Positions 25,605 to 64,000 of a stretch of DNA of 64,000 nucleotides are shown piece after piece. The notes under the pieces are model-generated. The model searched no databases and was not told where the DNA came from. It saw nothing but the letters and a program-made list of their open reading frames with translations. The stretch is from Lodderomyces elongisporus (Eukaryota; Ascomycota; Pichiomycetes; Serinales; Debaryomycetaceae): assembly GCF_030384665.1 (NCBI RefSeq), contig NC_083677.1, forward strand, positions 1,361,501 to 1,425,500, given 5' to 3'. Each line of letters starts with the position of its first letter. The first letter of the stretch is position 1. The position numbers were made by a program, and so were the translations under genes.

Positions 25605-25644
<40 letters not shown>

Positions 25645-28804: not shown

Positions 28805-28947
28805 CTCATCTCGTTTGAAGTTTCAAGTTTCCCATGTCGTGCAATATTCTCCAAATATTCACTTAGCGGAAACGAGGGCACAGAGCGTCCAGTGTGTGTC
28901 GCACTGTGACAATCTTCTTTCCTTCTTTCCTTTGTTTTTTTTTTCTG

Positions 28948-28957
28948 TATATATATT
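28948..28957 (+). promoter_or_regulatory. TATA-like run upstream of BOR1-like gene
   Basis: An alternating TATATATATT stretch lies about 157-166 bases before the BOR1-like ATG and inside the 202 bases left between the LTR and the gene. It is the likeliest core promoter and is repeated in every unit. Confidence 0.45.
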
Positions 28958-29113
28958 TAATTTTGCATTCCCGCTCCTCCCCTCCCACATATCTTATCTA
29001 CTTGAAAGAAAGTTGAAGTGGACAAGTAGTTTATTCTACACCAGCCCATAAGTAAGACATTAGCAAAAAAAAGAAAAAAAATCAAAAATCTGGAGCCACA
29101 CTGCTTTGTTTTC

Positions 29114-30817
29114 ATGATGAAGAGGCTATCGTTTAAGCATTTCAACTATTTTGGGTATGGTATCTATCATGATATCAAAACCAGACTCCCGTACTACAAG
29201 TCCGACTTTACTGATGCGTGGAACTATCGAGTCATCCCTTCGTCTACATTCATCTTTTTCGCCAACTTGCTTCCAGCAATCGCATTTGCCCAGGATATGT
29301 TCGATAAGACCAATAATGCCTATGGAGTGAATGAGGTTCTCATGTCCAGTGCATTTGGTGGAGTTGTATTTGGATTGTTCTCGGGCCAGCCTTTGTGCAT
29401 CGTGGGCGTTACTGGTCCCATCTCAATCTTTAGTTACACCGTGTACGAGCTAATGACCCCACGAGGGACTCCATATTTTCCATTTATGTGTTGGATATAT
29501 TTATGGAGTATGGTTTTCCATATTATAATTGCAGTAGGGAACTACATCTCCTGGATGAGAATCATTAGTCTTTACTCGTGTGATATATTTGGGTTCTTTA
29601 TCAACTTGGTCTATATCCAAAAGGGGATCCAGATCTTGCTGAACCAGTTTGACGATGTTAACTTGGCAAGTGGATACTGCTCGGTCATGATTGCTTTGTG
29701 TATGATCATTTGTGGTGTAGGATCAACCACATTTGGAAATTATCTCCACTACTTTCGTCCCTGGGTCAGAAAAGTATTTGTCGATTATGGAGTAGTTGCA
29801 TCGGTGATTTTCTTTACCGGGTTCATCCATTTTGGTGGGAAATTGAACGATACAGAGCTTGCTCGATTACCAATAACCAAATCGTTTCAGCCAACTGAAC
29901 ATGGCGATATACGACCACACGGATGGTTTATTCATTTCTGGCCGGGCGAAAACATTGAGGTTGGAGACGTGTTTCTTGCCATTCCATTTGCCATTCTCCT
30001 TACTTTTCTTTTTTACTTTGACCACAATGTATCATCATTGATGTGCCAGTCCAAGGAGTACCCACTCAAGAAACCAGCATCGTTCCATTGGGATTTCCTC
30101 TTACTTGGACTCACAACAGGGTTTGCTGGAATTATGGGTATCCCTCCACCAAATGGTCTTATCCCGCAAGCACCACTTCACACTGACTCTTTGGTTGTTT
30201 ATGACCATAGCGGAAAGAAGCTTTCGGTGGTGGAACAAAGAGTCACCAATACAGTGCAAGGAATAATGACCTTTGTGATGATGTCGCGGCCGTTTCTAGT
30301 AATCTTGGGGCTTGTCCCTCAAGCAGTTCTTTCGGGTCTTTTCTTCATCATGGCGATCTCGGGACTTCACGGCAATATCGTCACTAATAGAATTAGATAC
30401 ATTTTCTTGGATAAGCATTATATTGAAAACGATCCCAATTGTCCCCAGCTTTTCAGAGATATCCATGCTTTACCTACGAAGAAATGGTTTTACATATACG
30501 TTGTACTCGAAGTCATAGGTGGTGTTGCAGAGTTTGTAATTACCTTGACCATTGCGGCAGTCGGATTCCCTGGTGTTCTATTATTTCTTGCATTTTGCGC
30601 CAAATGGATCTGGCCGTTGTTTATACCACGCGAAGAGCTAGATCGATTGGATGGAGATGTGGCGGATGAGTTTATATTAAAAAACTTTACTGTGGCATCG
30701 GACGAGAAGAAAAGGAGGAAACAAAACGGGGTAGATGAAGAGAAAGCGCTGGAGAGTGAGATCGACGATGATGCAGAAGAGTATACAAGAGATGCAGCCA
30801 TCAGTAGCAGCGAGTGA
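29114..30817 (+). CDS. BOR1: BOR1-type boron/anion exporter, copy 1
   Basis: The 567-residue membrane protein belongs to the SLC4 (bicarbonate transporter-like) family; the yeast member Bor1 (576 residues) exports borate at the plasma membrane. Landmarks are NLLPAIAFAQDM (51-62), QPLCIVGVTGPISIFSYT (92-109) in the substrate-site region and GFAGIMGIPPPNGLIPQAPLHTDSL (about 336-360), and a hydrophilic charged tail from about residue 515. A dozen or so hydrophobic segments fit the family fold. The start is the first of two adjacent ATGs. CTG codons occur at residues 176 and 546 and would be serine in a CTG-clade yeast. The LTR element ends 202 bases upstream, so the native promoter has been split. 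Boron export is the known role in S. cerevisiae; other anions are possible. Confidence 0.92.
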   Translation: MMKRLSFKHFNYFGYGIYHDIKTRLPYYKSDFTDAWNYRVIPSSTFIFFANLLPAIAFAQDMFDKTNNAYGVNEVLMSSAFGGVVFGLFSGQPLCIVGVTGPISIFSYTVYELMTPRGTPYFPFMCWIYLWSMVFHIIIAVGNYISWMRIISLYSCDIFGFFINLVYIQKGIQILLNQFDDVNLASGYCSVMIALCMIICGVGSTTFGNYLHYFRPWVRKVFVDYGVVASVIFFTGFIHFGGKLNDTELARLPITKSFQPTEHGDIRPHGWFIHFWPGENIEVGDVFLAIPFAILLTFLFYFDHNVSSLMCQSKEYPLKKPASFHWDFLLLGLTTGFAGIMGIPPPNGLIPQAPLHTDSLVVYDHSGKKLSVVEQRVTNTVQGIMTFVMMSRPFLVILGLVPQAVLSGLFFIMAISGLHGNIVTNRIRYIFLDKHYIENDPNCPQLFRDIHALPTKKWFYIYVVLEVIGGVAEFVITLTIAAVGFPGVLLFLAFCAKWIWPLFIPREELDRLDGDVADEFILKNFTVASDEKKRRKQNGVDEEKALESEIDDDAEEYTRDAAISSSE

Positions 30818-31525
30818 GTCTCTATACTTTACGTTTACTAAATTTTTTTTTTGTTTTCAATTCTTGTGTGCTATTGAGCAATTTTTGCACTTGTGCAATT
30901 GTGCCATCACAAGTGGGTGGCTGTGCATGTGGATGTACATCATAGGACACACATCCATTTGAAAGTGTGATTTTATCTGTTTGCTTATATATATAATAAT
31001 AATAATGATAATAATAATAAAAATAGATGTTTCTTTGTTGTGGGGTTGCGAATAAGTTTCAAAGAGAATACGGTTCTCAATGATTAGAAGTATAGTTTTG
31101 AAATTGCTCAATAGTATATACCATCTTACCCTCACGTGATCTAACTTGATAAACTTTTGAAAACCATTTTGTGTAATTGCAACATCTCGGCAAATTAACC
31201 CAGCACCCCTCTTCTTTTGGACTGTAACTAGATTTTTTAAAATCCCTAGTGAGCTTATTTTTCAAGTTACTTTATACACTTCTCCTTGGTCAAACAAGAA
31301 ATAGATAAACAGCGAAATTTAGGATATGAAAAATATTTTATCAACAAAACATGGCATTAAGGTACTAAATCTATAAATTCACCTTGAATGATGGATATAA
31401 GAAAAGAAAAAAAGGAAAAAAAGGAAAAAAAGAAAAAAGGAAAAAAAGAAAAAACATAAAACAGAAAAAAAAGAAAAAACGCCCCCCTTGTAATAGCCCA
31501 CATCTCTTTAACAAACAAACCTACC
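30818..31525. other. convergent spacer in array unit
   Basis: Between the BOR1-like stop and the stop of the small secreted-protein gene there is no further gene. It holds a TAATAA run (about 30992-31020), an E-box palindrome TCACGTGA at 31132-31139 and an A-rich purine stretch (31397-31460). The same spacer recurs in each unit at +6983 (later units +7021). Confidence 0.6.
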
Positions 31526-31984
31526 CTAGAATGGTTTAGGCGCTGGATGGGTTTCCGCGTATTCTCTTTCGATAGCACGAATAATCGCCACTTCGCCGGC
31601 CCAGGCTATTGCCGTTTGGTTTGGGAATAAGTAAAGCTCAGAAGCCAAGGTTGCATTAATGTGCAATATTTCCAAAACCTTATCGAAACCAGCTTTCCCT
31701 CTTGGGATGGTGTGGTTGAGGTACGAGTTGACAACACCATCCAAGTATTCAAGCGGGATCCATGCTGGTAATGGGTACGTGTCTCTCTTGCCTGTTCCAT
31801 ATCTATACGAGGCAGTTCCTGTTTTGATTTCCCTCTTTGGAAGTGGCACTGGTTTTGCCTCTTCTCTTTTGTCATGCAAACCAAAAATTATACTTCCATC
31901 AGTTTTGTTGGGGTAACCAAAAAAGATTGCATTCAACGTAGCAAAAAGAGTCGCAATTGCAAAAAACAATTGTACAAACTTCAT
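31526..31984 (-). CDS. small secreted protein with Lys-Arg processing sites, copy 1
   Basis: I do not recognise this 152-residue protein. Residues 1-19 (MKFVQLFFAIATLFATLNA) form a clear signal peptide with a plausible Ala cleavage site. Three Lys-Arg or equivalent dibasic pairs at 39-40, 50-51 and 66-67 would allow Kex2 to release peptides of about 9 and 14 residues (starting EEAKPV and EIKTGT) and a C-terminal 85-residue part. Four Asn-X-Thr sequons at Asn26, Asn90, Asn110 and Asn122 suggest heavy N-glycosylation. There are no cysteines, no transmembrane segment after the signal and no GPI-type tail. It has twelve or so leucines and no CTG codon. It faces the BOR1-like gene tail to tail and is amplified with it. 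A secreted peptide or cell-surface precursor is the inference; function is unknown. Confidence 0.8.
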   Translation of the reverse strand: MKFVQLFFAIATLFATLNAIFFGYPNKTDGSIIFGLHDKREEAKPVPLPKREIKTGTASYRYGTGKRDTYPLPAWIPLEYLDGVVNSYLNHTIPRGKAGFDKVLEILHINATLASELYLFPNQTAIAWAGEVAIIRAIEREYAETHPAPKPF

Positions 31985-33369
31985 GATGAACTATTGATTA
32001 TTGATGCAAAGTAGATATTTGAGCAAAAAAGACAAAAAAGACAAAAAAGAAAACAAAAAGAAAACAAAAAGAAAAACCAATTGCCGTATGATTCTGGAAT
32101 TGGTAAAACTTGTAATCTTAAACCTTGGACTTTTGAAGAAAAAGACTTATAAAAAAAATATTTTGATTGGAAGCAAAACTGAATTGTTTATATAGTTTTT
32201 TTTTTTTTTGGTAATCTGTCAATTCGGACAGAAGCCAAAAAAAAGGCAGTGTTTTAAGCCATTGTAACATAGTAAAAGATGCCCATTGCCCAAAGATTAG
32301 CATTATAACAATAAAGAAAGGGCAAAAAAAAAGCAAGAAAGGGTGGAGGAATAGAAGAGGAGGGGAGGAAAGAAGAAAGGGAGGTGAGACGAAAGGCGGA
32401 TAATTTCTTAAGCAAGCAGAGTGCTGCAATGGTTTGTTCTTCACCTACGTTAATACCGCAAATTTCCACTTATTTTGATTCTTATTCTTATTCTCAATTT
32501 TCTTATACTTGGTTATATGGGCTTTTCATTTTTGCTTTTGAAACAATAAGCTCTGTGTTCATAACATGTGCAAACGAAAATGTACTTCTTTCGTTTAGCG
32601 ACAAAGTTGTTTATCAGGGGGTTGAAAACCTTGCAAAAACAGCTGTGTGTATATAAAATTTTGAGAAATTCAGACAACAGCTTTTAATTGACACTATCTC
32701 ATAATGGATCGAAAGAACGGTTAGAATTTTTTTTGTGTAAAAGGATTAAAACACATCCACAGTGTAATTAGTCTGGCACGTTATTGATCGACATTTTAAT
32801 TCTTTCTTTCTTTGTTCTTTTTTTTTTTTTCCTTCTTTTTAGTTTTCGGTTAATTAAAACAGTGATTTGTGATGGTCTTATGGGAAATCAATTAGGTTTA
32901 TCACTCGCTTTTCAATTCTGTCAACAATTTCAAGAGCTTCTGAATTCCAAAGTTTCAGAGACCAAGGATATATTTGTTCCCTTTGGTATTGCCGTGGCTT
33001 TAAGACAAAAACCAAAACGGGCTGAATTTCCAACGCTCAGAATTTAATGATTTAAAAAAATAACTTCCCTTTGATATTCATGCATTGTGCTGATAGGCTC
33101 AGCTGAAAATTTTGCTTTCCTAATGAATAATTTTCATAGTTTCCACATTTTTTTTCTCTTGGGTGTTGCTGCTAATGTTAATGATTATTGTTGATAGTTA
33201 TTGTTAGGAACTATTGTTGATAGTTATTGTTAATGATTATCAATGTTAAGAAGAATATTATACTAGAAACCAGTCGACTATAATATACTATTCATAATAA
33301 AACAAAGGCAACCTGGTAAAATAAAGAAAAGAAAATGCAAGCAACGAATGGAAAGGTTTCGAGCCATGA
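31985..33369. other. spacer downstream of array genes, with a possible gene remnant
   Basis: This 1.4-kb stretch is the promoter side of the secreted-protein gene and ends at the next element. Most is A/T-rich. A 55-codon ATG frame at 32880-33047 has normal-looking composition and is preceded by a long pyrimidine tract ending in AG at 32841-32842, like a 3' splice site, but I could not find a matching 5' site or family. Repeated TTGTTGATAGTTATTGTTA units lie at about 33187-33235. CATGA at 33365-33369 precedes the left LTR of the following element and is probably the target sequence of an older second insertion. Confidence 0.5.
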
Positions 33370-35894
33370 TGTCGCATAGCACTGTCACAAGTAACAAGTG
33401 TACGACTGCTGAGCATCGGTTTGAGCTGGTAGCTCACCGATACCAGCGGTTTGAGTTCGTGACTTGATAGGCTATATTCCAACTAAGTGTAATTGTCAAT
33501 GATCGCACCTATAAAGGTCTCAATGCTCATAAGTTAAGAGAGTAAATTGTCTCATACAAAGTCACTAGTAAGGAGAATCGTGAGAGTATACACTCCGCAC
33601 GTTCACCTAGTGATTTGTGTTCAATGTAGTTGACCGTCTAAATTATGTATTTAACCGATATTTCTATATAATAGTGATAAGTTAATTTTACCACTTCTCG
33701 TTCCTATTTATATAAACTCATCTCGTTTGAAGTTTCAAGTTTCCCATGTCGTGCAATATTCTCCAAATATTCACTTAGCGGAAACGAGGGCACAGAGCGT
33801 CCAGTGTGTGTCGCACTGTGACATCTTCCCCCCTTCAAAGTCAGATGAAAGATACGGCCTAATTTCAGTTGTACTTTGGAAAAATATTGATTTGAGGTAA
33901 GATAACTGTACAGTATGATGATAACCGTTGTGGCCTCCCCCCCTGCAAAGCAAAGGCTTACCTATTAAAAGTGAGCGAAGCGGCAACAAAAGGTTTCGAC
34001 AATTTCCTGAAATTCTATTGAATAAAAAGGGAAATGTTCTCATCAACGTTTGTAGCAAATGAATACCTTCAAATCCAAAAACCAAATATTGCGGGTTTTG
34101 TTCAGTTATTGTTGGGATATAATTATCTTTCACGCCGTGCGGGTTACGAGTCGACGTCGACAATACATTGGGTAAAGTAAAAAGCATTTCACCATCAACT
34201 AGCCGCGCGCCTGGGTCTGTTTGTTCGGAATTCGTCGACAAAATATCAAGACTTCGGTTAAAAACTCCCCTACTACTAAAAACGGAAAGTCAGCATCTCC
34301 AATATTCTAATAATTGAACGTCCTGTAGAAACACTGAGGTTTCATAAAATAAGTTGGTTGTTCCTTTGGGATTCTGTCCCACGGTAGTTACCTTCTCCGT
34401 CGAAACACTGAGGTTTCATAAAATTTGTTGGTTGTTCCTTTGGGCTTCTGTCCCACGGTAGTTACCTTCTCCGTCGTTTTTTGAAAGGTGTATCTTCTCA
34501 CCCGAAACACTGAGGTTTCATAATAATAATTGGTTGCTTCTTTCGGGATGCAATTTTGTCTTTCTCTCAAGATGCTATAAAGTCTTTCTTGCGAGATGCA
34601 ATTTAGTCTTTCCCTCGGTAGTTACCATCTCCGCCGTTTTTATCTGGTGTAATTCTACCTCACCGATAACCCGTGTAGTTTGTTTAGTCTGCTACCATCA
34701 TACTCAGATGAGTCCGTAGACAGTAATGATGATTTCTTAAACGCTGCTTTAACGGTGCTTATTTACCTTCTAGAATGTAATAAGTCTTTTTTAAAAAAAT
34801 GATATAAACCCAAATTAGGGATGTGGTCATTATCCTAAAAATACTTTCCTCGATCTTTGCACCAATTGAGGGTAGCCACTTATACCCGTGCAATCTTCGG
34901 TACTCGTTTCAACGCCATGCCTATCACACGTACAGCCTTCAAACTATAGCCAAGTCAGCAGACACGACTCTATTCGGTCTATAGTTGCACTCTGTCTAAC
35001 GTCTACAACCTTCGCCCTTTGTCAACTGATGGGTGAATATTCCATCATAAAGTGTTGACAGTATACGCTATTTGATATTTTCTGGTGTAGTCTCGGATAC
35101 GTCCCGATGACTACGATGCATTATGTTCCATTGGACTAAACTCGCATAGTTCTCCAATGAGGAGTAGCTCCTCCTTTAAACTGTAGTTCACAATAGTGAA
35201 GCTATTAATTCGTGGATAGGAGATTTACTCTTCCACAGGTCCTTCTCATAAATGATATTGACCAAATGTTGAAATGCCAAGGTATTGAAATGTCATGATC
35301 ATTCAATATCCTGGTCGACAATACTGCTTAACAGTAGCCTCAACCAATGTATCAATTACTTGAAATATTAGGTAACCATATCAAATCATTCAAATAACAT
35401 GATTTGTAAGGATTTGAGTTCCTCACTCTGGTCGCCATTCTGTCGCATAGCACTGTCACAAGTAACAAGTGTACGACTGCTGAGCATCGGTTTGAGCTGG
35501 TAGCTCACCGATACCAGCGGTTTGAGTTCGTGACTTGATAGGCTATATTCCAACTAAGTGTAATTGTCAATGATCGCACCTATAAAGGTCTCAATGCTCA
35601 TAAGTTAAGAGAGTAAATTGTCTCATACAAAGTCACTAGTAAGGAGAATCGTGAGAGTATACACTCTGCACGTTCACCTAGTGATTTGTGTTCAATGTAG
35701 TTGACCGTATAAAATCTATATTTTACCGATATTTCTATATAATAGTGATAAGTTAATTTTACCACTTCTCGTTCCTATTTATATAAACTCATCTCGTTTG
35801 AAGTTTCAAGTTTCCCATGTCGTGCAATATTCTCCAAATATTCACTTAGCGGAAACGAGGGCACAGAGCGTCCAGTGTGTGTCGCACTGTGACA
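33370..35894 (-). mobile_element. hybrid LTR element, second copy
   Basis: The left LTR is 33370-33823, the internal region 33824-35440 and the right LTR 35441-35894. The left LTR differs from the right one at six positions (C at 33596 and five changes in the GACCGTCTAAATTATGTATT segment near 33638-33653), so the two LTRs do not come from one insertion. The flanks are CATGA on the left and ATCTT on the right, which do not match. Two substitutions in the internal region, T at 35407 and T at 35419, are unique to this copy. Confidence 0.9.
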
Positions 35895-36096
35895 ATCTTC
35901 TTTCCTTCTTTCCTTTGTTTTTTTTTTCTGTATATATATTTAATTTTGCATTCCCGCTCCTCCCCTCCCACATATCTTATCTACTTGAAAGAAAGTTGAA
36001 GTGGACAAGTAGTTTATTCTACACCAGCCCATAAGTAAGACATTAGCAAAAAAAAGAAAAAAAATCAAAAATCTGGAGCCACACTGCTTTGTTTTC

Positions 36097-37800
36097 ATGA
36101 TGAAGAGGCTATCGTTTAAGCATTTCAACTATTTTGGGTATGGTATCTATCATGATATCAAAACCAGACTCCCGTACTACAAGTCCGACTTTACTGATGC
36201 GTGGAACTATCGAGTCATCCCTTCGTCTACATTCATCTTTTTCGCCAACTTGCTTCCAGCAATCGCATTTGCCCAGGATATGTTCGATAAGACCAATAAT
36301 GCCTATGGAGTGAATGAGGTTCTCATGTCCAGTGCATTTGGTGGAGTTGTATTTGGATTGTTCTCGGGCCAGCCTTTGTGCATCGTGGGCGTTACTGGTC
36401 CCATCTCAATCTTTAGTTACACCGTGTACGAGCTAATGACCCCACGAGGGACTCCATATTTTCCATTTATGTGTTGGATATATTTATGGAGTATGGTTTT
36501 CCATATTATAATTGCAGTAGGGAACTACATCTCCTGGATGAGAATCATTAGTCTTTACTCGTGTGATATATTTGGGTTCTTTATCAACTTGGTCTATATC
36601 CAAAAGGGGATCCAGATCTTGCTGAACCAGTTTGACGATGTTAACTTGGCAAGTGGATACTGCTCGGTCATGATTGCTTTGTGTATGATCATTTGTGGTG
36701 TAGGATCAACCACATTTGGAAATTATCTCCACTACTTTCGTCCCTGGGTCAGAAAAGTATTTGTCGATTATGGAGTAGTTGCATCGGTGATTTTCTTTAC
36801 CGGGTTCATCCATTTTGGTGGGAAATTGAACGATACAGAGCTTGCTCGATTACCAATAACCAAATCGTTTCAGCCAACTGAACATGGCGATATACGACCA
36901 CACGGATGGTTTATTCATTTCTGGCCGGGCGAAAACATTGAGGTTGGAGACGTGTTTCTTGCCATTCCATTTGCCATTCTCCTTACTTTTCTTTTTTACT
37001 TTGACCACAATGTATCATCATTGATGTGCCAGTCCAAGGAGTACCCACTCAAGAAACCAGCATCGTTCCATTGGGATTTCCTCTTACTTGGACTCACAAC
37101 AGGGTTTGCTGGAATTATGGGTATCCCTCCACCAAATGGTCTTATCCCGCAAGCACCACTTCACACTGACTCTTTGGTTGTTTATGACCATAGCGGAAAG
37201 AAGCTTTCGGTGGTGGAACAAAGAGTCACCAATACAGTGCAAGGAATAATGACCTTTGTGATGATGTCGCGGCCGTTTCTAGTAATCTTGGGGCTTGTCC
37301 CTCAAGCAGTTCTTTCGGGTCTTTTCTTCATCATGGCGATCTCGGGACTTCACGGCAATATCGTCACTAATAGAATTAGATACATTTTCTTGGATAAGCA
37401 TTATATTGAAAACGATCCCAATTGTCCCCAGCTTTTCAGAGATATCCATGCTTTACCTACGAAGAAATGGTTTTACATATACGTTGTACTCGAAGTCATA
37501 GGTGGTGTTGCAGAGTTTGTAATTACCTTGACCATTGCGGCAGTCGGATTCCCTGGTGTTCTATTATTTCTTGCATTTTGCGCCAAATGGATCTGGCCGT
37601 TGTTTATACCACGCGAAGAGCTAGATCGATTGGATGGAGATGTGGCGGATGAGTTTATATTAAAAAACTTTACTGTGGCATCGGACGAGAAGAAAAGGAG
37701 GAAACAAAACGGGGTAGATGAAGAGAAAGCGCTGGAGAGTGAGATCGACGATGATGCAGAAGAGTATACAAGAGATGCAGCCATCAGTAGCAGCGAGTGA
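36097..37800 (+). CDS. BOR1: BOR1-type boron/anion exporter, copy 2
   Basis: The predicted 567-residue protein is identical to copy 1 and the gene is intact. The upstream 202 bases to the LTR are also the same, so this copy should be expressed like the others. Confidence 0.92.
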   Translation: MMKRLSFKHFNYFGYGIYHDIKTRLPYYKSDFTDAWNYRVIPSSTFIFFANLLPAIAFAQDMFDKTNNAYGVNEVLMSSAFGGVVFGLFSGQPLCIVGVTGPISIFSYTVYELMTPRGTPYFPFMCWIYLWSMVFHIIIAVGNYISWMRIISLYSCDIFGFFINLVYIQKGIQILLNQFDDVNLASGYCSVMIALCMIICGVGSTTFGNYLHYFRPWVRKVFVDYGVVASVIFFTGFIHFGGKLNDTELARLPITKSFQPTEHGDIRPHGWFIHFWPGENIEVGDVFLAIPFAILLTFLFYFDHNVSSLMCQSKEYPLKKPASFHWDFLLLGLTTGFAGIMGIPPPNGLIPQAPLHTDSLVVYDHSGKKLSVVEQRVTNTVQGIMTFVMMSRPFLVILGLVPQAVLSGLFFIMAISGLHGNIVTNRIRYIFLDKHYIENDPNCPQLFRDIHALPTKKWFYIYVVLEVIGGVAEFVITLTIAAVGFPGVLLFLAFCAKWIWPLFIPREELDRLDGDVADEFILKNFTVASDEKKRRKQNGVDEEKALESEIDDDAEEYTRDAAISSSE

Positions 37801-40352: not shown

Positions 40353-42877
40353 TGTCGCATAGCACTGTCACAAGTAACAAGTGTACGACTGCTGAGCATC
40401 GGTTTGAGCTGGTAGCTCACCGATACCAGCGGTTTGAGTTCGTGACTTGATAGGCTATATTCCAACTAAGTGTAATTGTCAATGATCGCACCTATAAAGG
40501 TCTCAATGCTCATAAGTTAAGAGAGTAAATTGTCTCATACAAAGTCACTAGTAAGGAGAATCGTGAGAGTATACACTCCGCACGTTCACCTAGTGATTTG
40601 TGTTCAATGTAGTTGACCGTCTAAATTATGTATTTAACCGATATTTCTATATAATAGTGATAAGTTAATTTTACCACTTCTCGTTCCTATTTATATAAAC
40701 TCATCTCGTTTGAAGTTTCAAGTTTCCCATGTCGTGCAATATTCTCCAAATATTCACTTAGCGGAAACGAGGGCACAGAGCGTCCAGTGTGTGTCGCACT
40801 GTGACATCTTCCCCCCTTCAAAGTCAGATGAAAGATACGGCCTAATTTCAGTTGTACTTTGGAAAAATATTGATTTGAGGTAAGATAACTGTACAGTATG
40901 ATGATAACCGTTGTGGCCTCCCCCCCTGCAAAGCAAAGGCTTACCTATTAAAAGTGAGCGAAGCGGCAACAAAAGGTTTCGACAATTTCCTGAAATTCTA
41001 TTGAATAAAAAGGGAAATGTTCTCATCAACGTTTGTAGCAAATGAATACCTTCAAATCCAAAAACCAAATATTGCGGGTTTTGTTCAGTTATTGTTGGGA
41101 TATAATTATCTTTCACGCCGTGCGGGTTACGAGTCGACGTCGACAATACATTGGGTAAAGTAAAAAGCATTTCACCATCAACTAGCCGCGCGCCTGGGTC
41201 TGTTTGTTCGGAATTCGTCGACAAAATATCAAGACTTCGGTTAAAAACTCCCCTACTACTAAAAACGGAAAGTCAGCATCTCCAATATTCTAATAATTGA
41301 ACGTCCTGTAGAAACACTGAGGTTTCATAAAATAAGTTGGTTGTTCCTTTGGGATTCTGTCCCACGGTAGTTACCTTCTCCGTCGAAACACTGAGGTTTC
41401 ATAAAATTTGTTGGTTGTTCCTTTGGGCTTCTGTCCCACGGTAGTTACCTTCTCCGTCGTTTTTTGAAAGGTGTATCTTCTCACCCGAAACACTGAGGTT
41501 TCATAATAATAATTGGTTGCTTCTTTCGGGATGCAATTTTGTCTTTCTCTCAAGATGCTATAAAGTCTTTCTTGCGAGATGCAATTTAGTCTTTCCCTCG
41601 GTAGTTACCATCTCCGCCGTTTTTATCTGGTGTAATTCTACCTCACCGATAACCCGTGTAGTTTGTTTAGTCTGCTACCATCATACTCAGATGAGTCCGT
41701 AGACAGTAATGATGATTTCTTAAACGCTGCTTTAACGGTGCTTATTTACCTTCTAGAATGTAATAAGTCTTTTTTAAAAAAATGATATAAACCCAAATTA
41801 GGGATGTGGTCATTATCCTAAAAATACTTTCCTCGATCTTTGCACCAATTGAGGGTAGCCACTTATACCCGTGCAATCTTCGGTACTCGTTTCAACGCCA
41901 TGCCTATCACACGTACAGCCTTCAAACTATAGCCAAGTCAGCAGACACGACTCTATTCGGTCTATAGTTGCACTCTGTCTAACGTCTACAACCTTCGCCC
42001 TTTGTCAACTGATGGGTGAATATTCCATCATAAAGTGTTGACAGTATACGCTATTTGATATTTTCTGGTGTAGTCTCGGATACGTCCCGATGACTACGAT
42101 GCATTATGTTCCATTGGACTAAACTCGCATAGTTCTCCAATGAGGAGTAGCTCCTCCTTTAAACTGTAGTTCACAATAGTGAAGCTATTAATTCGTGGAT
42201 AGGAGATTTACTCTTCCACAGGTCCTTCTCATAAATGATATTGACCAAATGTTGAAATGCCAAGGTATTGAAATGTCATGATCATTCAATATCCTGGTCG
42301 ACAATACTGCTTAACAGTAGCCTCAACCAATGTATCAATTACTTGAAATATTAGGTAACCATATCAAATCATTCAAATAACATGATTTGCAAGGATTTGA
42401 GGTCCTCACTCTGGTCGCCATTCTGTCGCATAGCACTGTCACAAGTAACAAGTGTACGACTGCTGAGCATCGGTTTGAGCTGGTAGCTCACCGATACCAG
42501 CGGTTTGAGTTCGTGACTTGATAGGCTATATTCCAACTAAGTGTAATTGTCAATGATCGCACCTATAAAGGTCTCAATGCTCATAAGTTAAGAGAGTAAA
42601 TTGTCTCATACAAAGTCACTAGTAAGGAGAATCGTGAGAGTATACACTCTGCACGTTCACCTAGTGATTTGTGTTCAATGTAGTTGACCGTATAAAATCT
42701 ATATTTTACCGATATTTCTATATAATAGTGATAAGTTAATTTTACCACTTCTCGTTCCTATTTATATAAACTCATCTCGTTTGAAGTTTCAAGTTTCCCA
42801 TGTCGTGCAATATTCTCCAAATATTCACTTAGCGGAAACGAGGGCACAGAGCGTCCAGTGTGTGTCGCACTGTGACA
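40353..42877 (-). mobile_element. hybrid LTR element, third copy
   Basis: The left LTR (40353-40806) is of the second type, the internal region is 40807-42423 and the right LTR (42424-42877) is of the first type. Flanks are CATGA and ATCTT as in the second copy. The internal region has the majority bases where the second copy has T. Confidence 0.9.
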
Positions 42878-50062: not shown

Positions 50063-51766
50063 ATGATGAAGAGGCTATCGTTTAAGCATTTCAACTATTT
50101 TGGGTATGGTATCTATCATGATATCAAAACCAGACTCCCGTACTACAAGTCCGACTTTACTGATGCGTGGAACTATCGAGTCATCCCTTCGTCTACATTC
50201 ATCTTTTTCGCCAACTTGCTTCCAGCAATCGCATTTGCCCAGGATATGTTCGATAAGACCAATAATGCCTATGGAGTGAATGAGGTTCTCATGTCCAGTG
50301 CATTTGGTGGAGTTGTATTTGGATTGTTCTCGGGCCAGCCTTTGTGCATCGTGGGCGTTACTGGTCCCATCTCAATCTTTAGTTACACCGTGTACGAGCT
50401 AATGACCCCACGAGGGACTCCATATTTTCCATTTATGTGTTGGATATATTTATGGAGTATGGTTTTCCATATTATAATTGCAGTAGGGAACTACATCTCC
50501 TGGATGAGAATCATTAGTCTTTACTCGTGTGATATATTTGGGTTCTTTATCAACTTGGTCTATATCCAAAAGGGGATCCAGATCTTGCTGAACCAGTTTG
50601 ACGATGTTAACTTGGCAAGTGGATACTGCTCGGTCATGATTGCTTTGTGTATGATCATTTGTGGTGTAGGATCAACCACATTTGGAAATTATCTCCACTA
50701 CTTTCGTCCCTGGGTCAGAAAAGTATTTGTCGATTATGGAGTAGTTGCATCGGTGATTTTCTTTACCGGGTTCATCCATTTTGGTGGGAAATTGAACGAT
50801 ACAGAGCTTGCTCGATTACCAATAACCAAATCGTTTCAGCCAACTGAACATGGCGATATACGACCACACGGATGGTTTATTCATTTCTGGCCGGGCGAAA
50901 ACATTGAGGTTGGAGACGTGTTTCTTGCCATTCCATTTGCCATTCTCCTTACTTTTCTTTTTTACTTTGACCACAATGTATCATCATTGATGTGCCAGTC
51001 CAAGGAGTACCCACTCAAGAAACCAGCATCGTTCCATTGGGATTTCCTCTTACTTGGACTCACAACAGGGTTTGCTGGAATTATGGGTATCCCTCCACCA
51101 AATGGTCTTATCCCGCAAGCACCACTTCACACTGACTCTTTGGTTGTTTATGACCATAGCGGAAAGAAGCTTTCGGTGGTGGAACAAAGAGTCACCAATA
51201 CAGTGCAAGGAATAATGACCTTTGTGATGATGTCGCGGCCGTTTCTAGTAATCTTGGGGCTTGTCCCTCAAGCAGTTCTTTCGGGTCTTTTCTTCATCAT
51301 GGCGATCTCGGGACTTCACGGCAATATCGTCACTAATAGAATTAGATACATTTTCTTGGATAAGCATTATATTGAAAACGATCCCAATTGTCCCCAGCTT
51401 TTCAGAGATATCCATGCTTTACCTACGAAGAAATGGTTTTACATATACGTTGTACTCGAAGTCATAGGTGGTGTTGCAGAGTTTGTAATTACCTTGACCA
51501 TTGCGGCAGTCGGATTCCCTGGTGTTCTATTATTTCTTGCATTTTGCGCCAAATGGATCTGGCCGTTGTTTATACCACGCGAAGAGCTAGATCGATTGGA
51601 TGGAGATGTGGCGGATGAGTTTATATTAAAAAACTTTACTGTGGCATCGGACGAGAAGAAAAGGAGGAAACAAAACGGGGTAGATGAAGAGAAAGCGCTG
51701 GAGAGTGAGATCGACGATGATGCAGAAGAGTATACAAGAGATGCAGCCATCAGTAGCAGCGAGTGA
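50063..51766 (+). CDS. BOR1: BOR1-type boron/anion exporter, copy 4
   Basis: The predicted protein is identical to copy 1, full length and intact. Confidence 0.92.
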   Translation: MMKRLSFKHFNYFGYGIYHDIKTRLPYYKSDFTDAWNYRVIPSSTFIFFANLLPAIAFAQDMFDKTNNAYGVNEVLMSSAFGGVVFGLFSGQPLCIVGVTGPISIFSYTVYELMTPRGTPYFPFMCWIYLWSMVFHIIIAVGNYISWMRIISLYSCDIFGFFINLVYIQKGIQILLNQFDDVNLASGYCSVMIALCMIICGVGSTTFGNYLHYFRPWVRKVFVDYGVVASVIFFTGFIHFGGKLNDTELARLPITKSFQPTEHGDIRPHGWFIHFWPGENIEVGDVFLAIPFAILLTFLFYFDHNVSSLMCQSKEYPLKKPASFHWDFLLLGLTTGFAGIMGIPPPNGLIPQAPLHTDSLVVYDHSGKKLSVVEQRVTNTVQGIMTFVMMSRPFLVILGLVPQAVLSGLFFIMAISGLHGNIVTNRIRYIFLDKHYIENDPNCPQLFRDIHALPTKKWFYIYVVLEVIGGVAEFVITLTIAAVGFPGVLLFLAFCAKWIWPLFIPREELDRLDGDVADEFILKNFTVASDEKKRRKQNGVDEEKALESEIDDDAEEYTRDAAISSSE

Positions 51767-54318: not shown

Positions 54319-56881
54319 TGTCGCATAGCACTGTCACAAGTAACAAGTGTACGACTGCTGAGCATCGGTTTGAGCTGGTAGCTCACCGATACCAGCGGTT
54401 TGAGTTCGTGACTTGATAGGCTATATTCCAACTAAGTGTAATTGTCAATGATCGCACCTATAAAGGTCTCAATGCTCATAAGTTAAGAGAGTAAATTGTC
54501 TCATACAAAGTCACTAGTAAGGAGAATCGTGAGAGTATACACTCTGCACGTTCACCTAGTGATTTGTGTTCAATGTAGTTGACCGTCTAAATTATGTATT
54601 TAACCGATATTTCTATATAATAGTGATAAGTTAATTTTACCACTTCTCGTTCCTATTTATATAAACTCATCTCGTTTGAAGTTTCAAGTTTCCCATGTCG
54701 TGCAATATTCTCCAAATATTCACTTAGCGGAAACGAGGGCACAGAGCGTCCAGTGTGTGTCGCACTGTGACATCTTCCCCCCTTCAAAGTCAGATGAAAG
54801 ATACGGCCTAATTTCAGTTGTACTTTGGAAAAATATTGATTTGAGGTAAGATAACTGTACAGTATGATGATAACCGTTGTGGCCTCCCCCCCTGCAAAGC
54901 AAAGGCTTACCTATTAAAAGTGAGCGAAGCGGCAACAAAAGGTTTCGACAATTTCCTGAAATTCTATTGAATAAAAAGGGAAATGTTCTCATCAACGTTT
55001 GTAGCAAATGAATACCTTCAAATCCAAAAACCAAATATTGCGGGTTTTGTTCAGTTATTGTTGGGATATAATTATCTTTCACGCCGTGCGGGTTACGAGT
55101 CGACGTCGACAATACATTGGGTAAAGTAAAAAGCATTTCACCATCAACTAGCCGCGCGCCTGGGTCTGTTTGTTCGGAATTCGTCGACAAAATATCAAGA
55201 CTTCGGTTAAAAACTCCCCTACTACTAAAAACGGAAAGTCAGCATCTCCAATATTCTAATAATTGAACGTCCTGTAGAAACACTGAGGTTTCATAAAATA
55301 AGTTGGTTGTTCCTTTGGGATTCTGTCCCACGGTAGTTACCTTCTCCGTCGAAACACTGAGGTTTCATAAAATTTGTTGGTTGTTCCTTTGGGCTTCTGT
55401 CCCACGGTAGTTACCTTCTCCGTCGTTTTTTGAAAGGTGTATCTTCTCACCCGAAACACTGAGGTTTCATAATAATAATTGGTTGCTTCTTTCGGGATGC
55501 AATTTTGTCTTTCTCTCAAGATGCTATAAAGTCTTTCTTGCGAGATGCAATTTAGTCTTTCCCTCGGTAGTTACCATCTCCGCCGTTTTTATCTGGTGTA
55601 ATTCTACCTCACCGATAACCCGTGTAGTTTGTTTAGTCTGCTACCATCATACTCAGATGAGTCCGTAGACAGTAATGATGATTTCTTAAACGCTGCTTTA
55701 ACGGTGCTTATTTACCTTCTAGAATGTAATAAGTCTTTTTTAAAAAAATGATATAAACCCAAATTAGGGATGTGGTCATTATCCTAAAAATACTTTCCTC
55801 GATCTTTGCACCAATTGAGGGTAGCCACTTATACCCGTGCAATCTTCGGTACTCGTTTCAACGCCATGCCTATCACACGTACAGCCTTCAAACTATAGCC
55901 AAGTCAGCAGACACGACTCTATTCGGTCTATAGTTGCACTCTGTCTAACGTCTACAACCTTCGCCCTTTGTCAACTGATGGGTGAATATTCCATCATAAA
56001 GTGTTGACAGTATACGCTATTTGATATTTTCTGGTGTAGTCTCGGATACGTCCCGATGACTACGATGCATTATGTTCCATTGGACTAAACTCGCATAGTT
56101 CTCCAATGAGGAGTAGCTCCTCCTTTAAACTGTAGTTCACAATAGTGAAGCTATTAATTCGTGGATAGGAGATTTACTCTTCCACAGGTCCTTCTCATAA
56201 ATGATATTGACCAAATGTTGAAATGCCAAGGTATTGAAATGTCATGATCATTCAATATCCTGGTCGACAATACTGCTTAACAGTAGCCTCAACCAATGTA
56301 TCAATTACTTGAAATATTAGGTAACCATATCAAATCATTCAAATAACATGATTTGCAAGGATTTGAGGTCCTCACTCTGGTCGCCATTCTGTCGCATAGC
56401 ACTGTCACAAGTAACAAGTGTACGACTGCTGAGCATCGGTTTGAGCTGGTAGCTCACCGATACCAGCGGTTTGAGTTCGTGACTTGATAGGCTATATTCC
56501 AACTAAGTGTAATTGTCAATGATCGCACCTATAAAGGTCTCAATGCTCATAAGTTAAGAGAGTAAATTGTCTCATACAAAGTCACTAGTAAGGAGAATCG
56601 TGAGAGTATACACTCTGCACGTTCACCTAGTGATTTGTGTTCAATGTAGTTGACCGTATAAAATCTATATTTTACCGATATTTCTATATAATAGTGATAA
56701 GTTAATTTTACCACTTCTCGTTCCTATTTATATAAACTCATCTCGTTTGAAGTTTCAAGTTTCCCATGTCGTGCAATATTCTCCAAATATTCACTTAGCG
56801 GAAACGAGGGCACAGAGCGTCCAGTGTGTCACTTAGCGGAAACGAGGGCACAGAGCGTCCAGTGTGTGTCGCACTGTGACA
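54319..56881 (-). mobile_element. hybrid LTR element, fifth copy, with 38-bp duplication
   Basis: Left LTR 54319-54772, internal region 54773-56389, right LTR 56390-56881. The right LTR is 492 bp because 38 bp are duplicated in tandem. The left LTR is of the second type but has T at 54545 where the other second-type LTRs have C; this matches the first type and could be a point mutation or short gene conversion. Confidence 0.9.
56792..56867. repeat. 38-bp tandem duplication inside one LTR
   Basis: The block starting CACTTAGCGG and ending CCAGTGTGT is present at 56792-56829 and again at 56830-56867. Other LTRs have one copy. It sits between the TATA-like palindrome and the LTR edge facing BOR1-like copy 5, making this copy's upstream region 38 bp longer. 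Confidence 0.97.
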
Positions 56882-57083: not shown

Positions 57084-58787
57084 ATGATGAAGAGGCTATC
57101 GTTTAAGCATTTCAACTATTTTGGGTATGGTATCTATCATGATATCAAAACCAGACTCCCGTACTACAAGTCCGACTTTACTGATGCGTGGAACTATCGA
57201 GTCATCCCTTCGTCTACATTCATCTTTTTCGCCAACTTGCTTCCAGCAATCGCATTTGCCCAGGATATGTTCGATAAGACCAATAATGCCTATGGAGTGA
57301 ATGAGGTTCTCATGTCCAGTGCATTTGGTGGAGTTGTATTTGGATTGTTCTCGGGCCAGCCTTTGTGCATCGTGGGCGTTACTGGTCCCATCTCAATCTT
57401 TAGTTACACCGTGTACGAGCTAATGACCCCACGAGGGACTCCATATTTTCCATTTATGTGTTGGATATATTTATGGAGTATGGTTTTCCATATTATAATT
57501 GCAGTAGGGAACTACATCTCCTGGATGAGAATCATTAGTCTTTACTCGTGTGATATATTTGGGTTCTTTATCAACTTGGTCTATATCCAAAAGGGGATCC
57601 AGATCTTGCTGAACCAGTTTGACGATGTTAACTTGGCAAGTGGATACTGCTCGGTCATGATTGCTTTGTGTATGATCATTTGTGGTGTAGGATCAACCAC
57701 ATTTGGAAATTATCTCCACTACTTTCGTCCCTGGGTCAGAAAAGTATTTGTCGATTATGGAGTAGTTGCATCGGTGATTTTCTTTACCGGGTTCATCCAT
57801 TTTGGTGGGAAATTGAACGATACAGAGCTTGCTCGATTACCAATAACCAAATCGTTTCAGCCAACTGAACATGGCGATATACGACCACACGGATGGTTTA
57901 TTCATTTCTGGCCGGGCGAAAACATTGAGGTTGGAGACGTGTTTCTTGCCATTCCATTTGCCATTCTCCTTACTTTTCTTTTTTACTTTGACCACAATGT
58001 ATCATCATTGATGTGCCAGTCCAAGGAGTACCCACTCAAGAAACCAGCATCGTTCCATTGGGATTTCCTCTTACTTGGACTCACAACAGGGTTTGCTGGA
58101 ATTATGGGTATCCCTCCACCAAATGGTCTTATCCCGCAAGCACCACTTCACACTGACTCTTTGGTTGTTTATGACCATAGCGGAAAGAAGCTTTCGGTGG
58201 TGGAACAAAGAGTCACCAATACAGTGCAAGGAATAATGACCTTTGTGATGATGTCGCGGCCGTTTCTAGTAATCTTGGGGCTTGTCCCTCAAGCAGTTCT
58301 TTCGGGTCTTTTCTTCATCATGGCGATCTCGGGACTTCACGGCAATATCGTCACTAATAGAATTAGATACATTTTCTTGGATAAGCATTATATTGAAAAC
58401 GATCCCAATTGTCCCCAGCTTTTCAGAGATATCCATGCTTTACCTACGAAGAAATGGTTTTACATATACGTTGTACTCGAAGTCATAGGTGGTGTTGCAG
58501 AGTTTGTAATTACCTTGACCATTGCGGCAGTCGGATTCCCTGGTGTTCTATTATTTCTTGCATTTTGCGCCAAATGGATCTGGCCGTTGTTTATACCACG
58601 CGAAGAGCTAGATCGATTGGATGGAGATGTGGCGGATGAGTTTATATTAAAAAACTTTACTGTGGCATCGGACGAGAAGAAAAGGAGGAAACAAAACGGG
58701 GTAGATGAAGAGAAAGCGCTGGAGAGTGAGATCGACGATGATGCAGAAGAGTATACAAGAGATGCAGCCATCAGTAGCAGCGAGTGA
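57084..58787 (+). CDS. BOR1: BOR1-type boron/anion exporter, copy 5
   Basis: The predicted protein is identical to copy 1 and intact. The gene-proximal 202 bases are unchanged; the 38-bp duplication lies beyond them in the LTR. Confidence 0.92.
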   Translation: MMKRLSFKHFNYFGYGIYHDIKTRLPYYKSDFTDAWNYRVIPSSTFIFFANLLPAIAFAQDMFDKTNNAYGVNEVLMSSAFGGVVFGLFSGQPLCIVGVTGPISIFSYTVYELMTPRGTPYFPFMCWIYLWSMVFHIIIAVGNYISWMRIISLYSCDIFGFFINLVYIQKGIQILLNQFDDVNLASGYCSVMIALCMIICGVGSTTFGNYLHYFRPWVRKVFVDYGVVASVIFFTGFIHFGGKLNDTELARLPITKSFQPTEHGDIRPHGWFIHFWPGENIEVGDVFLAIPFAILLTFLFYFDHNVSSLMCQSKEYPLKKPASFHWDFLLLGLTTGFAGIMGIPPPNGLIPQAPLHTDSLVVYDHSGKKLSVVEQRVTNTVQGIMTFVMMSRPFLVILGLVPQAVLSGLFFIMAISGLHGNIVTNRIRYIFLDKHYIENDPNCPQLFRDIHALPTKKWFYIYVVLEVIGGVAEFVITLTIAAVGFPGVLLFLAFCAKWIWPLFIPREELDRLDGDVADEFILKNFTVASDEKKRRKQNGVDEEKALESEIDDDAEEYTRDAAISSSE

Positions 58788-59954: not shown

Positions 59955-61339
59955 GATGAACTATTGATTATTGATGCAAAGTAGATATTTGAGCAAAAAA
60001 GACAAAAAAGACAAAAAAGAAAACAAAAAGAAAACAAAAAGAAAAACCAATTGCCGTATGATTCTGGAATTGGTAAAACTTGTAATCTTAAACCTTGGAC
60101 TTTTGAAGAAAAAGACTTATAAAAAAAATATTTTGATTGGAAGCAAAACTGAATTGTTTATATAGTTTTTTTTTTTTTTGGTAATCTGTCAATTCGGACA
60201 GAAGCCAAAAAAAAGGCAGTGTTTTAAGCCATTGTAACATAGTAAAAGATGCCCATTGCCCAAAGATTAGCATTATAACAATAAAGAAAGGGCAAAAAAA
60301 AAGCAAGAAAGGGTGGAGGAATAGAAGAGGAGGGGAGGAAAGAAGAAAGGGAGGTGAGACGAAAGGCGGATAATTTCTTAAGCAAGCAGAGTGCTGCAAT
60401 GGTTTGTTCTTCACCTACGTTAATACCGCAAATTTCCACTTATTTTGATTCTTATTCTTATTCTCAATTTTCTTATACTTGGTTATATGGGCTTTTCATT
60501 TTTGCTTTTGAAACAATAAGCTCTGTGTTCATAACATGTGCAAACGAAAATGTACTTCTTTCGTTTAGCGACAAAGTTGTTTATCAGGGGGTTGAAAACC
60601 TTGCAAAAACAGCTGTGTGTATATAAAATTTTGAGAAATTCAGACAACAGCTTTTAATTGACACTATCTCATAATGGATCGAAAGAACGGTTAGAATTTT
60701 TTTTGTGTAAAAGGATTAAAACACATCCACAGTGTAATTAGTCTGGCACGTTATTGATCGACATTTTAATTCTTTCTTTCTTTGTTCTTTTTTTTTTTTT
60801 CCTTCTTTTTAGTTTTCGGTTAATTAAAACAGTGATTTGTGATGGTCTTATGGGAAATCAATTAGGTTTATCACTCGCTTTTCAATTCTGTCAACAATTT
60901 CAAGAGCTTCTGAATTCCAAAGTTTCAGAGACCAAGGATATATTTGTTCCCTTTGGTATTGCCGTGGCTTTAAGACAAAAACCAAAACGGGCTGAATTTC
61001 CAACGCTCAGAATTTAATGATTTAAAAAAATAACTTCCCTTTGATATTCATGCATTGTGCTGATAGGCTCAGCTGAAAATTTTGCTTTCCTAATGAATAA
61101 TTTTCATAGTTTCCACATTTTTTTTCTCTTGGGTGTTGCTGCTAATGTTAATGATTATTGTTGATAGTTATTGTTAGGAACTATTGTTGATAGTTATTGT
61201 TAATGATTATCAATGTTAAGAAGAATATTATACTAGAAACCAGTCGACTATAATATACTATTCATAATAAAACAAAGGCAACCTGGTAAAATAAAGAAAA
61301 GAAAATGCAAGCAACGAATGGAAAGGTTTCGAGCCATGA

Positions 61340-63864
61340 TGTCGCATAGCACTGTCACAAGTAACAAGTGTACGACTGCTGAGCATCGGTTTGAGCTGGT
61401 AGCTCACCGATACCAGCGGTTTGAGTTCGTGACTTGATAGGCTATATTCCAACTAAGTGTAATTGTCAATGATCGCACCTATAAAGGTCTCAATGCTCAT
61501 AAGTTAAGAGAGTAAATTGTCTCATACAAAGTCACTAGTAAGGAGAATCGTGAGAGTATACACTCCGCACGTTCACCTAGTGATTTGTGTTCAATGTAGT
61601 TGACCGTCTAAATTATGTATTTAACCGATATTTCTATATAATAGTGATAAGTTAATTTTACCACTTCTCGTTCCTATTTATATAAACTCATCTCGTTTGA
61701 AGTTTCAAGTTTCCCATGTCGTGCAATATTCTCCAAATATTCACTTAGCGGAAACGAGGGCACAGAGCGTCCAGTGTGTGTCGCACTGTGACATCTTCCC
61801 CCCTTCAAAGTCAGATGAAAGATACGGCCTAATTTCAGTTGTACTTTGGAAAAATATTGATTTGAGGTAAGATAACTGTACAGTATGATGATAACCGTTG
61901 TGGCCTCCCCCCCTGCAAAGCAAAGGCTTACCTATTAAAAGTGAGCGAAGCGGCAACAAAAGGTTTCGACAATTTCCTGAAATTCTATTGAATAAAAAGG
62001 GAAATGTTCTCATCAACGTTTGTAGCAAATGAATACCTTCAAATCCAAAAACCAAATATTGCGGGTTTTGTTCAGTTATTGTTGGGATATAATTATCTTT
62101 CACGCCGTGCGGGTTACGAGTCGACGTCGACAATACATTGGGTAAAGTAAAAAGCATTTCACCATCAACTAGCCGCGCGCCTGGGTCTGTTTGTTCGGAA
62201 TTCGTCGACAAAATATCAAGACTTCGGTTAAAAACTCCCCTACTACTAAAAACGGAAAGTCAGCATCTCCAATATTCTAATAATTGAACGTCCTGTAGAA
62301 ACACTGAGGTTTCATAAAATAAGTTGGTTGTTCCTTTGGGATTCTGTCCCACGGTAGTTACCTTCTCCGTCGAAACACTGAGGTTTCATAAAATTTGTTG
62401 GTTGTTCCTTTGGGCTTCTGTCCCACGGTAGTTACCTTCTCCGTCGTTTTTTGAAAGGTGTATCTTCTCACCCGAAACACTGAGGTTTCATAATAATAAT
62501 TGGTTGCTTCTTTCGGGATGCAATTTTGTCTTTCTCTCAAGATGCTATAAAGTCTTTCTTGCGAGATGCAATTTAGTCTTTCCCTCGGTAGTTACCATCT
62601 CCGCCGTTTTTATCTGGTGTAATTCTACCTCACCGATAACCCGTGTAGTTTGTTTAGTCTGCTACCATCATACTCAGATGAGTCCGTAGACAGTAATGAT
62701 GATTTCTTAAACGCTGCTTTAACGGTGCTTATTTACCTTCTAGAATGTAATAAGTCTTTTTTAAAAAAATGATATAAACCCAAATTAGGGATGTGGTCAT
62801 TATCCTAAAAATACTTTCCTCGATCTTTGCACCAATTGAGGGTAGCCACTTATACCCGTGCAATCTTCGGTACTCGTTTCAACGCCATGCCTATCACACG
62901 TACAGCCTTCAAACTATAGCCAAGTCAGCAGACACGACTCTATTCGGTCTATAGTTGCACTCTGTCTAACGTCTACAACCTTCGCCCTTTGTCAACTGAT
63001 GGGTGAATATTCCATCATAAAGTGTTGACAGTATACGCTATTTGATATTTTCTGGTGTAGTCTCGGATACGTCCCGATGACTACGATGCATTATGTTCCA
63101 TTGGACTAAACTCGCATAGTTCTCCAATGAGGAGTAGCTCCTCCTTTAAACTGTAGTTCACAATAGTGAAGCTATTAATTCGTGGATAGGAGATTTACTC
63201 TTCCACAGGTCCTTCTCATAAATGATATTGACCAAATGTTGAAATGCCAAGGTATTGAAATGTCATGATCATTCAATATCCTGGTCGACAATACTGCTTA
63301 ACAGTAGCCTCAACCAATGTATCAATTACTTGAAATATTAGGTAACCATATCAAATCATTCAAATAACATGATTTGCAAGGATTTGAGGTCCTCACTCTG
63401 GTCGCCATTCTGTCGCATAGCACTGTCACAAGTAACAAGTGTACGACTGCTGAGCATCGGTTTGAGCTGGTAGCTCACCGATACCAGCGGTTTGAGTTCG
63501 TGACTTGATAGGCTATATTCCAACTAAGTGTAATTGTCAATGATCGCACCTATAAAGGTCTCAATGCTCATAAGTTAAGAGAGTAAATTGTCTCATACAA
63601 AGTCACTAGTAAGGAGAATCGTGAGAGTATACACTCTGCACGTTCACCTAGTGATTTGTGTTCAATGTAGTTGACCGTATAAAATCTATATTTTACCGAT
63701 ATTTCTATATAATAGTGATAAGTTAATTTTACCACTTCTCGTTCCTATTTATATAAACTCATCTCGTTTGAAGTTTCAAGTTTCCCATGTCGTGCAATAT
63801 TCTCCAAATATTCACTTAGCGGAAACGAGGGCACAGAGCGTCCAGTGTGTGTCGCACTGTGACA
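61340..63864 (-). mobile_element. hybrid LTR element, sixth copy
   Basis: Left LTR 61340-61793 (second type, C at the variable site), internal region 61794-63410, right LTR 63411-63864 (first type, without the 38-bp duplication). It is followed by ATCTT and the start of another BOR1-like upstream region, so the array continues past the window. Confidence 0.9.
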
Positions 63865-64000
63865 ATCTTCTTTCCTTCTTTCCTTTGTTTTTTTTTTCTG
63901 TATATATATTTAATTTTGCATTCCCGCTCCTCCCCTCCCACATATCTTATCTACTTGAAAGAAAGTTGAAGTGGACAAGTAGTTTATTCTACACCAGCCC
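63865..64000 (+). other. start of sixth array unit (BOR1-like promoter region)
   Basis: These 136 bases equal the upstream region of the other BOR1-like copies, including the TATA-like run. By register the ATG of a sixth copy would lie at 64067, just outside the window. Confidence 0.95.

What the first reader, a model, noticed from the sequence alone, without database searches (positions are those of the whole stretch)
28912..64000. Tandem amplification of a boron-exporter gene, at least five intact copies and a sixth begun
Five BOR1-type genes with identical predicted proteins stand head to tail at 6983-7021 bp spacing. Established knowledge: Bor1 exports borate in yeast, and tandem amplification of the related Bot1 gene underlies boron tolerance in a barley landrace. 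Inference: this is a dosage adaptation to boron or another anion, built with an LTR element. I know of no description of such an array in yeast, but I could not search.
Basis: partly seen in the sequence, partly recalled or inferred. Interest (0 to 1): 0.88.

Follow-up and report, generated by a model that had tools for sequence, protein, structure and literature searches.

The report
Six-copy boron-exporter array from LTR recombination
The type strain of the yeast Lodderomyces elongisporus carries six identical head-to-tail copies of a gene for a borate-exporter-like membrane protein, apparently made when two copies of a mobile element on either side of the gene recombined, and this may have helped the yeast survive boron.

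Summary
The assembly has six, not five, intact BOR1-type genes in tandem. The array spans window 26417 to 68322, ending 4.3 kb past the window. [quoted passage not shown] The six 4,458-bp BOR1 segments are identical.

Its origin is readable from the element. Unit 1 begins with a 2.5-kb non-autonomous LTR retroelement ("A") flanked by a 5-bp duplication. The five internal junctions carry chimeric elements: left LTR of type B, right LTR of type A, no target duplication. Nine of nine elements elsewhere with both LTRs in hand have matched types. The right end is an empty site. This suggests recombination between A and an allelic insertion B downstream, on a chromosome pair where one homologue lacked B, then unequal exchange.

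Dosage adaptation to boron is plausible (essential aspartate conserved; Bor1p gives borate resistance in S. cerevisiae) but untested. Copy number six rests on few expected bridging reads. I found no report of a yeast BOR1 array, but LTR-mediated amplification and duplicated barley Bot1 are known kinds.

The parts
23412..25229 (+). left neighbour outside the array, TPR / anaphase-promoting-complex-like gene
   Evidence: Pfam TPR and ANAPC3
26417..28911 (-). element A: non-autonomous LTR retroelement, left LTR 26417-26840 (424 bp, 30 bp shorter than the others), internal 26841-28457 (1617 bp), right LTR 28458-28911 (454 bp, type A); target duplication ATCTT on both sides
   Evidence: PPT-like GAAGGGGGGAAGA beside the left LTR and PBS-like TGGCGACC beside the right LTR give minus-strand orientation (names of the tracts recalled)
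28912..33369 (+). amplified BOR1 segment of unit 1 (4,458 bp, identical in all six units)
29114..30817 (+). BOR1-type gene, copy 1 (567 aa); 202 bp lie between the end of element A and its ATG; divergent from element A
31526..31984 (-). 152-codon ORF in every unit: signal-like N-terminus (by eye), three KR sites, four N-glycosylation sequons; the only match found is its own cluster
   Evidence: no Pfam family
33370..35894 (-). junction element of unit 2: left LTR type B (33370-33823), B-type internal SNPs at 35407 and 35419, right LTR type A (35441-35894); flanks CATGA / ATCTT, no target duplication
36097..37800 (+). BOR1 copy 2
40353..42877 (-). junction element of unit 3 (B left LTR, A right LTR)
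43080..44783 (+). BOR1 copy 3
47336..49860 (-). junction element of unit 4 (B left LTR, A right LTR)
50063..51766 (+). BOR1 copy 4
54319..56881 (-). junction element of unit 5; left LTR type B with one A-type site (54545), right LTR with a 38-bp insertion
57084..58787 (+). BOR1 copy 5
61340..63864 (-). junction element of unit 6 (B left LTR, A right LTR)
63865..64000 (+). start of the sixth BOR1 segment; it runs on to 68322 (L007), with BOR1 copy 6 at 64067-65770, and ends at an empty site without any element

Best explanation
Shown by sequence: a tandem array of six 7-kb units, each one retroelement plus one BOR1 segment, with chimeric elements at all five internal junctions and an empty right end. 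Inferred mechanism: element A sat in the BOR1 promoter region, and a second, closely similar element B inserted 4.46 kb from it, 2.55 kb beyond the BOR1 stop codon, on one homologue of this diploid. Non-allelic homologous recombination between B on that homologue and A on the other, which lacked B, made a tandem duplication with a B/A junction. Unequal crossing-over and gene conversion between the 7-kb repeats then raised and homogenised it to at least six. Inferred function: more Bor1 borate exporter per cell and so higher boron tolerance, possibly aided by the divergent LTR that ends 202 bp upstream of each ATG. I put an origin by recombination between the two elements at about 0.8 and dosage selection for Bor1 by boron at about 0.45.
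For: Six BOR1 copies, none found elsewhere. Left LTR type B and right LTR type A in 5 of 5 junction elements (unit 5 with one A-type site on the left and an insertion on the right), with unequal flanks CATGA/ATCTT in 5 of 5; unit 1 has matching ATCTT flanks and a type-A right LTR. LTR types match within 9 of 9 elements outside the array for which I held both LTRs; exact 5-bp duplications in 6 of 9, one mismatch in 2, none in 1. Unit 2 keeps two B-type internal SNPs that the B/B elements at C6:90k, C7:1149k and C1:1893k share and the A/A element at C7:931k lacks, which places its switch between 35420 and 35666; units 3-6 switch further left. Existing A/A and B/B copies (L045, L046) differ at 15 positions of 2,525, a good recombination substrate. 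Empty right end. Bor1 identity: Pfam HCO3_cotransp 285 bits, solved Bor1p 5sv9 531 bits. D303 aligns with D311 of the plant BOR1 chain 5l25, the residue whose change to alanine abolishes function (PMC9959716). Bor1p mediates borate resistance in S. cerevisiae (PMC9959716). The same two-step route (new LTR insertion, then LTR recombination) is described for GAP1 (PMC11790251).
Against: An allele with element B and its right-hand junction is not in the assembly (0 matches), so B on a homologue is inferred; later conversion of the right end by a B-less homologue would look the same. A more divergent A/A element (C1:2570k) also carries the two 'B-type' interior SNPs. One of nine outside elements lacks a target duplication. 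No expression, depth or growth data. The unit also carries a 152-codon ORF. Zero divergence fits recent origin or homogenisation and says nothing about selection. Boron exposure of the strain is circumstantial.
Confidence: 0.6

Rival explanations
1. Assembly artefact or miscount: the copy number is wrong (too high or, more likely, collapsed too low), because units 3, 4 and 6 are identical.
For: Unit 2 SNPs and the unit 5 SNP lie 19,126 bp apart with identical repeats between. At 25x of reads over 20 kb only about 2-6 reads are expected to bridge this, if their mean length is 21-25 kb, which is my assumption.
Against: Units 1, 2 and 5 are each distinguishable and the right end is distinct. Reads over 20 kb should pass a 2.5-kb element easily, so a false A/B loop is unlikely. 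The contigs are gapless and fit the karyotype in size (PMC10586162).
Confidence: 0.12
2. Same recombination, different route: an excised circle (A x B on one chromosome) re-entered at A of a chromosome lacking B, perhaps after rolling-circle multiplication; or a one-ended cDNA insertion at the downstream site was completed by invasion of A; or a sister exchange followed by conversion of the right end by a homologue without B.
For: All give B/A junctions and an empty right end. LTR-made circles are described for GAP1 (PMC11790251).
Against: No extra feature favours them; two junction types in the array show more than one exchange or conversion event anyway.
Confidence: 0.25
3. Amplification selected for another reason: bicarbonate or pH handling by Bor1, or the 152-codon secreted-type ORF.
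For: Bor1 is SLC4-type and said to bind bicarbonate (PMC10881976, passages). The ORF's sequence is in 6 of 6 units.
Against: In S. cerevisiae the reported role of Bor1p is resistance to toxic borate (PMC9959716, passages). The ORF has no detectable relative outside its own cluster (1 protein found among 21 candidates).
Confidence: 0.2
4. Neutral or culture-collection event without adaptive value.
For: One strain, no population data; two direct 2.5-kb repeats 4.5 kb apart would be expected to recombine readily.
Against: Six copies of an exporter gene resemble the ARR3 arrays in C. parapsilosis, which the authors ascribe to selection (3-23 copies, PMC9600344).
Confidence: 0.3

Closest known systems
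Barley HvBot1 tandem duplication (landrace Sahara)
   Same: Tandem copies of a boron transporter gene with no sequence differences found between copies; an estimated four copies; expression follows copy number (PMC4584011, passages).
   Different: Plant. No LTR chimeras mentioned in the passages I read. Tolerance and expression were shown there, not here.
ARR3 and RTA3 tandem arrays in Candida parapsilosis
   Same: Close relative; tandem arrays away from telomeres of a transporter gene (ARR3: units 2.3-10.5 kb, 3-23 copies) in natural isolates (PMC9600344, abstract and passages).
   Different: Of 14 RTA3 tandem arrays, 12 have no repeats or repeats under 5 bp at their ends, and the words LTR and retrotransposon do not occur in the main text; here the ends are a 2.5-kb retroelement.
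GAP1 amplification by LTR recombination in S. cerevisiae
   Same: Hybrid LTR at the junction in some clones; a transposon-mediated class with a new downstream insertion recombining with an upstream LTR (PMC11790251, passages).
   Different: Laboratory evolution in haploids; here a diploid type strain, whole elements with an interior, and an empty right end.

Membership tests
Bor1 / SLC4-like borate exporters | HCO3_cotransp family match over the membrane domain | tested here: met
   PF00955, 284.9 bits against cut-off 27, in two stretches
Bor1 / SLC4-like borate exporters | Close to a yeast Bor1p of solved structure | tested here: met
   5sv9 (named Bor1p boron transporter), query residues 17-492, E 4.5e-158
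Bor1 / SLC4-like borate exporters | Essential aspartate of the solute site | tested here: met
   D303 aligned with D311 of 5l25, Boron transporter 1; role of AtBOR1 D311 and ScBor1p D347 from PMC9959716
Bor1 / SLC4-like borate exporters | Borate export and tolerance | not testable with these tools
   needs growth and boron assay
LTR-NAHR tandem amplification | Direct repeats of an LTR element bounding the unit, hybrid at junctions | tested here: met
   5 of 5 junctions B/A against 9 of 9 matched elements elsewhere with both LTRs in hand
LTR-NAHR tandem amplification | Parental elements on both sides of the ancestral single-copy gene | tested here: inconclusive
   A present with target duplication; B's own right junction absent from the assembly and right end empty
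LTR retrotransposon | Paired LTRs TG...CA, 5-bp target duplication, primer-binding and polypurine tracts | tested here: met
   names of the tracts are recalled, and the primer tRNA was not identified
LTR retrotransposon | Own coding capacity (gag-pol) | tested here: not met
   1,617-bp interior, longest stop-to-stop frame on the element strand 172 codons, partly in the LTR; non-autonomous. 21 match rows share only interior 681-1617; in 3 of 3 such loci looked at, a frame of at least 402 codons lies beside it, and the one scanned has no Pfam match, so gypsy or copia type is undecided

The most novel reading that the evidence does not exclude
[quoted passage not shown] Element A placed divergently in the promoter and then B-A recombination would give a two-step promoter-plus-dosage boron resistance allele, a fungal counterpart of barley Bot1.
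Probability: 0.2. Interest if true: 0.8.

Novelty: new member of a known kind. Interest (0 to 1): 0.55.

Why it matters
It is a natural, sequence-resolved case of gene amplification by recombination between whole retroelements. SNPs and flanks let one read the parents and the crossover interval, and the empty right end argues against a plain sister exchange. It sits in the type strain, the reference for an emerging opportunistic yeast, so BOR1 dosage there may not represent the species. If tied to boron it would parallel barley Bot1 across kingdoms.

Tried and rejected
Considered and set aside: a dispersed second BOR1 locus (none found; 6 of 6 matches in the array); a subtelomeric explanation (array lies at 1.388-1.430 Mb of a 1.763-Mb contig); a known structured RNA in 25000-36000 (no match at gathering score among 4227 families); the downstream 366-aa repeat protein as part of the unit (it lies outside). 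The borax-on-citrus link found no supporting passage: two searches (eight and three papers listed) of which I opened one review, which mentions boric acid only among salts tested on citrus mould (PMC8904086, passages); the history is recalled. That the type strain is the 1952 citrus isolate is my inference from the species description. Literature for a yeast BOR1 array: listings and, for BOR1 and boron tolerance, (20 of 36 papers shown); passages of PMC12682263 (BOR1 0, boron 0) and PMC10294660 (boron 0, copy number 0). None found, in an open-licence library only.

Left out of the count of matched LTR pairs: LTRs for which I held one side only, among them the 19 loci L051-L069, four solo LTRs, and the 10 rows given without a locus; itself scored 40 of 108 candidates.

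Papers seen: PMC10586162 main text, part 1 of 2 (it broke off within the reference list); passages only of PMC12682263, PMC10294660, PMC10484426, PMC9959716, PMC10881976, PMC4584011, PMC9600344, PMC11790251, PMC8904086; all other papers as search listings only.

Full report
Identity of the sequence. The window is C5:1361501-1425500 of a genome of 16,086,460 bases in 8 contigs. That total and contig number equal those of the NRRL YB-4239 assembly GCA_030384665.1 of Lodderomyces elongisporus (Hoyer et al., PMC10586162), and the protein next to the array, on a contig of the same length, carries its locus prefix, PVL30_004395. The species is diploid; the primary contigs come from PacBio HiFi reads over 20 kb at 25x.

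The array. Repeats and ORFs give five 567-codon genes in the window at 6983, 6983, 6983 and 7021 bp. The genome search adds a sixth and no other locus. With the next 20 kb of the contig the array runs from 26417 to 68322, 41.9 kb. All six BOR1 segments (4,458 bp each) are identical; every difference between units lies in the retroelement.

The element. Paired LTRs run TG...CA; the interior is 1,617 bp. On the minus strand a PBS-like TGGCGACC follows the first LTR and GAAGGGGGGAAGA precedes the second (names recalled), so the element points away from BOR1. It is non-autonomous. Other copies occur in the genome: one search gave 46 match rows to the interior, six of them the array's own and several being pieces of one element; 21 rows share only its 681-1617 part.

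Genealogy of the junctions. Two LTR types differ at six sites. Element A (unit 1) has ATCTT on both sides. The five junction elements have type B on the left (four exact, unit 5 with one A-type site) and type A on the right (four exact, unit 5 with a 38-bp insertion), with CATGA on the left and ATCTT on the right. Outside the array the two LTRs match in type in 9 of 9 elements for which I held both, five within single loci and four pieced from separately delivered LTR loci. One of these pairs (C3:1071k) is of a third type, B with one A-type site, the same as the left LTR of unit 5. Against a perfectly tidy picture, three of the nine lack an exact 5-bp duplication, two by one mismatch. Unit 2 has B-type interior SNPs at 35407 and 35419, shared with three of three B/B elements aligned and not with the nearest A/A element C7:931k; a more divergent A/A element (C1:2570k) has them too. 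So at least two exchange or conversion events shaped the array.

The right end. After unit 6 the sequence passes CATGA straight into DNA without the element. Neither a right junction of B nor an allele without A was found in the assembly, each searched as one 25-base pattern with up to 2 mismatches. A sister-chromatid exchange between A and B would leave B at the right end. The empty end therefore suggests a partner chromosome without B, which a diploid can supply; a circle, a one-ended insertion, or later conversion of the right end remain possible.

Age. Zero differences over 6 x 4,458 bp bounds mutation rate times time below about 1.1e-4 at 95% for a star-like history: recent, unless conversion homogenised the copies.

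Function. The protein is Bor1-like by Pfam and by sequence search of solved structures, 87% identical to a Lodderomyces beijingensis protein and 99% to an unnamed one. The aspartate required for transport is present. In S. cerevisiae Bor1p mediates borate resistance (PMC9959716). Each copy keeps 202 bp between the element's end and the ATG. Divergent Ty insertions can activate yeast genes (recalled), so promoter capture is possible but untested. Dosage by six copies is inference; barley Bot1 shows expression following copy number (PMC4584011).

Confidence in the count. Marker spacing leaves one 19.1-kb identical stretch, bridged by perhaps 2-6 reads under assumed read lengths. Six is best read as the assembler's answer, with more copies possible.

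Verdict. A probably real and recent BOR1 array made by recombination between LTR elements, not reported for yeast as far as the searches reach, but of a known kind.

Noticed in passing
L007:4885-5985 (window-equivalent 68885-69985), minus strand: Right neighbour outside the array: 366-codon protein with a signal-like start (by eye) and near-identical internal repeats ending in LLSKR; annotated hypothetical protein PVL30_004395, no Pfam family above its cut-off, and of 8000 scored candidates only itself and one unnamed ENA protein matched.
   Followed up: partly
window 31526-31984, minus strand: 152-codon ORF with signal-like N-terminus (by eye) and three KR sites, amplified with BOR1, apparently an orphan.
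   Followed up: partly
C3:532988-535755 (L018, L019): A related element whose two LTRs match in type but whose flanks (TCGTC / GTCGT) do not form an exact 5-bp duplication; it may be another recombinant.
   Followed up: no
L025, L026, L027, L039: Four apparent solo LTRs of the same family with exact 5-bp duplications, traces of LTR-LTR recombination elsewhere in this genome.
   Followed up: no
L007:7489-7857: Trinucleotide-type repeat giving a long threonine run on one strand and a valine run on the other.
   Followed up: no
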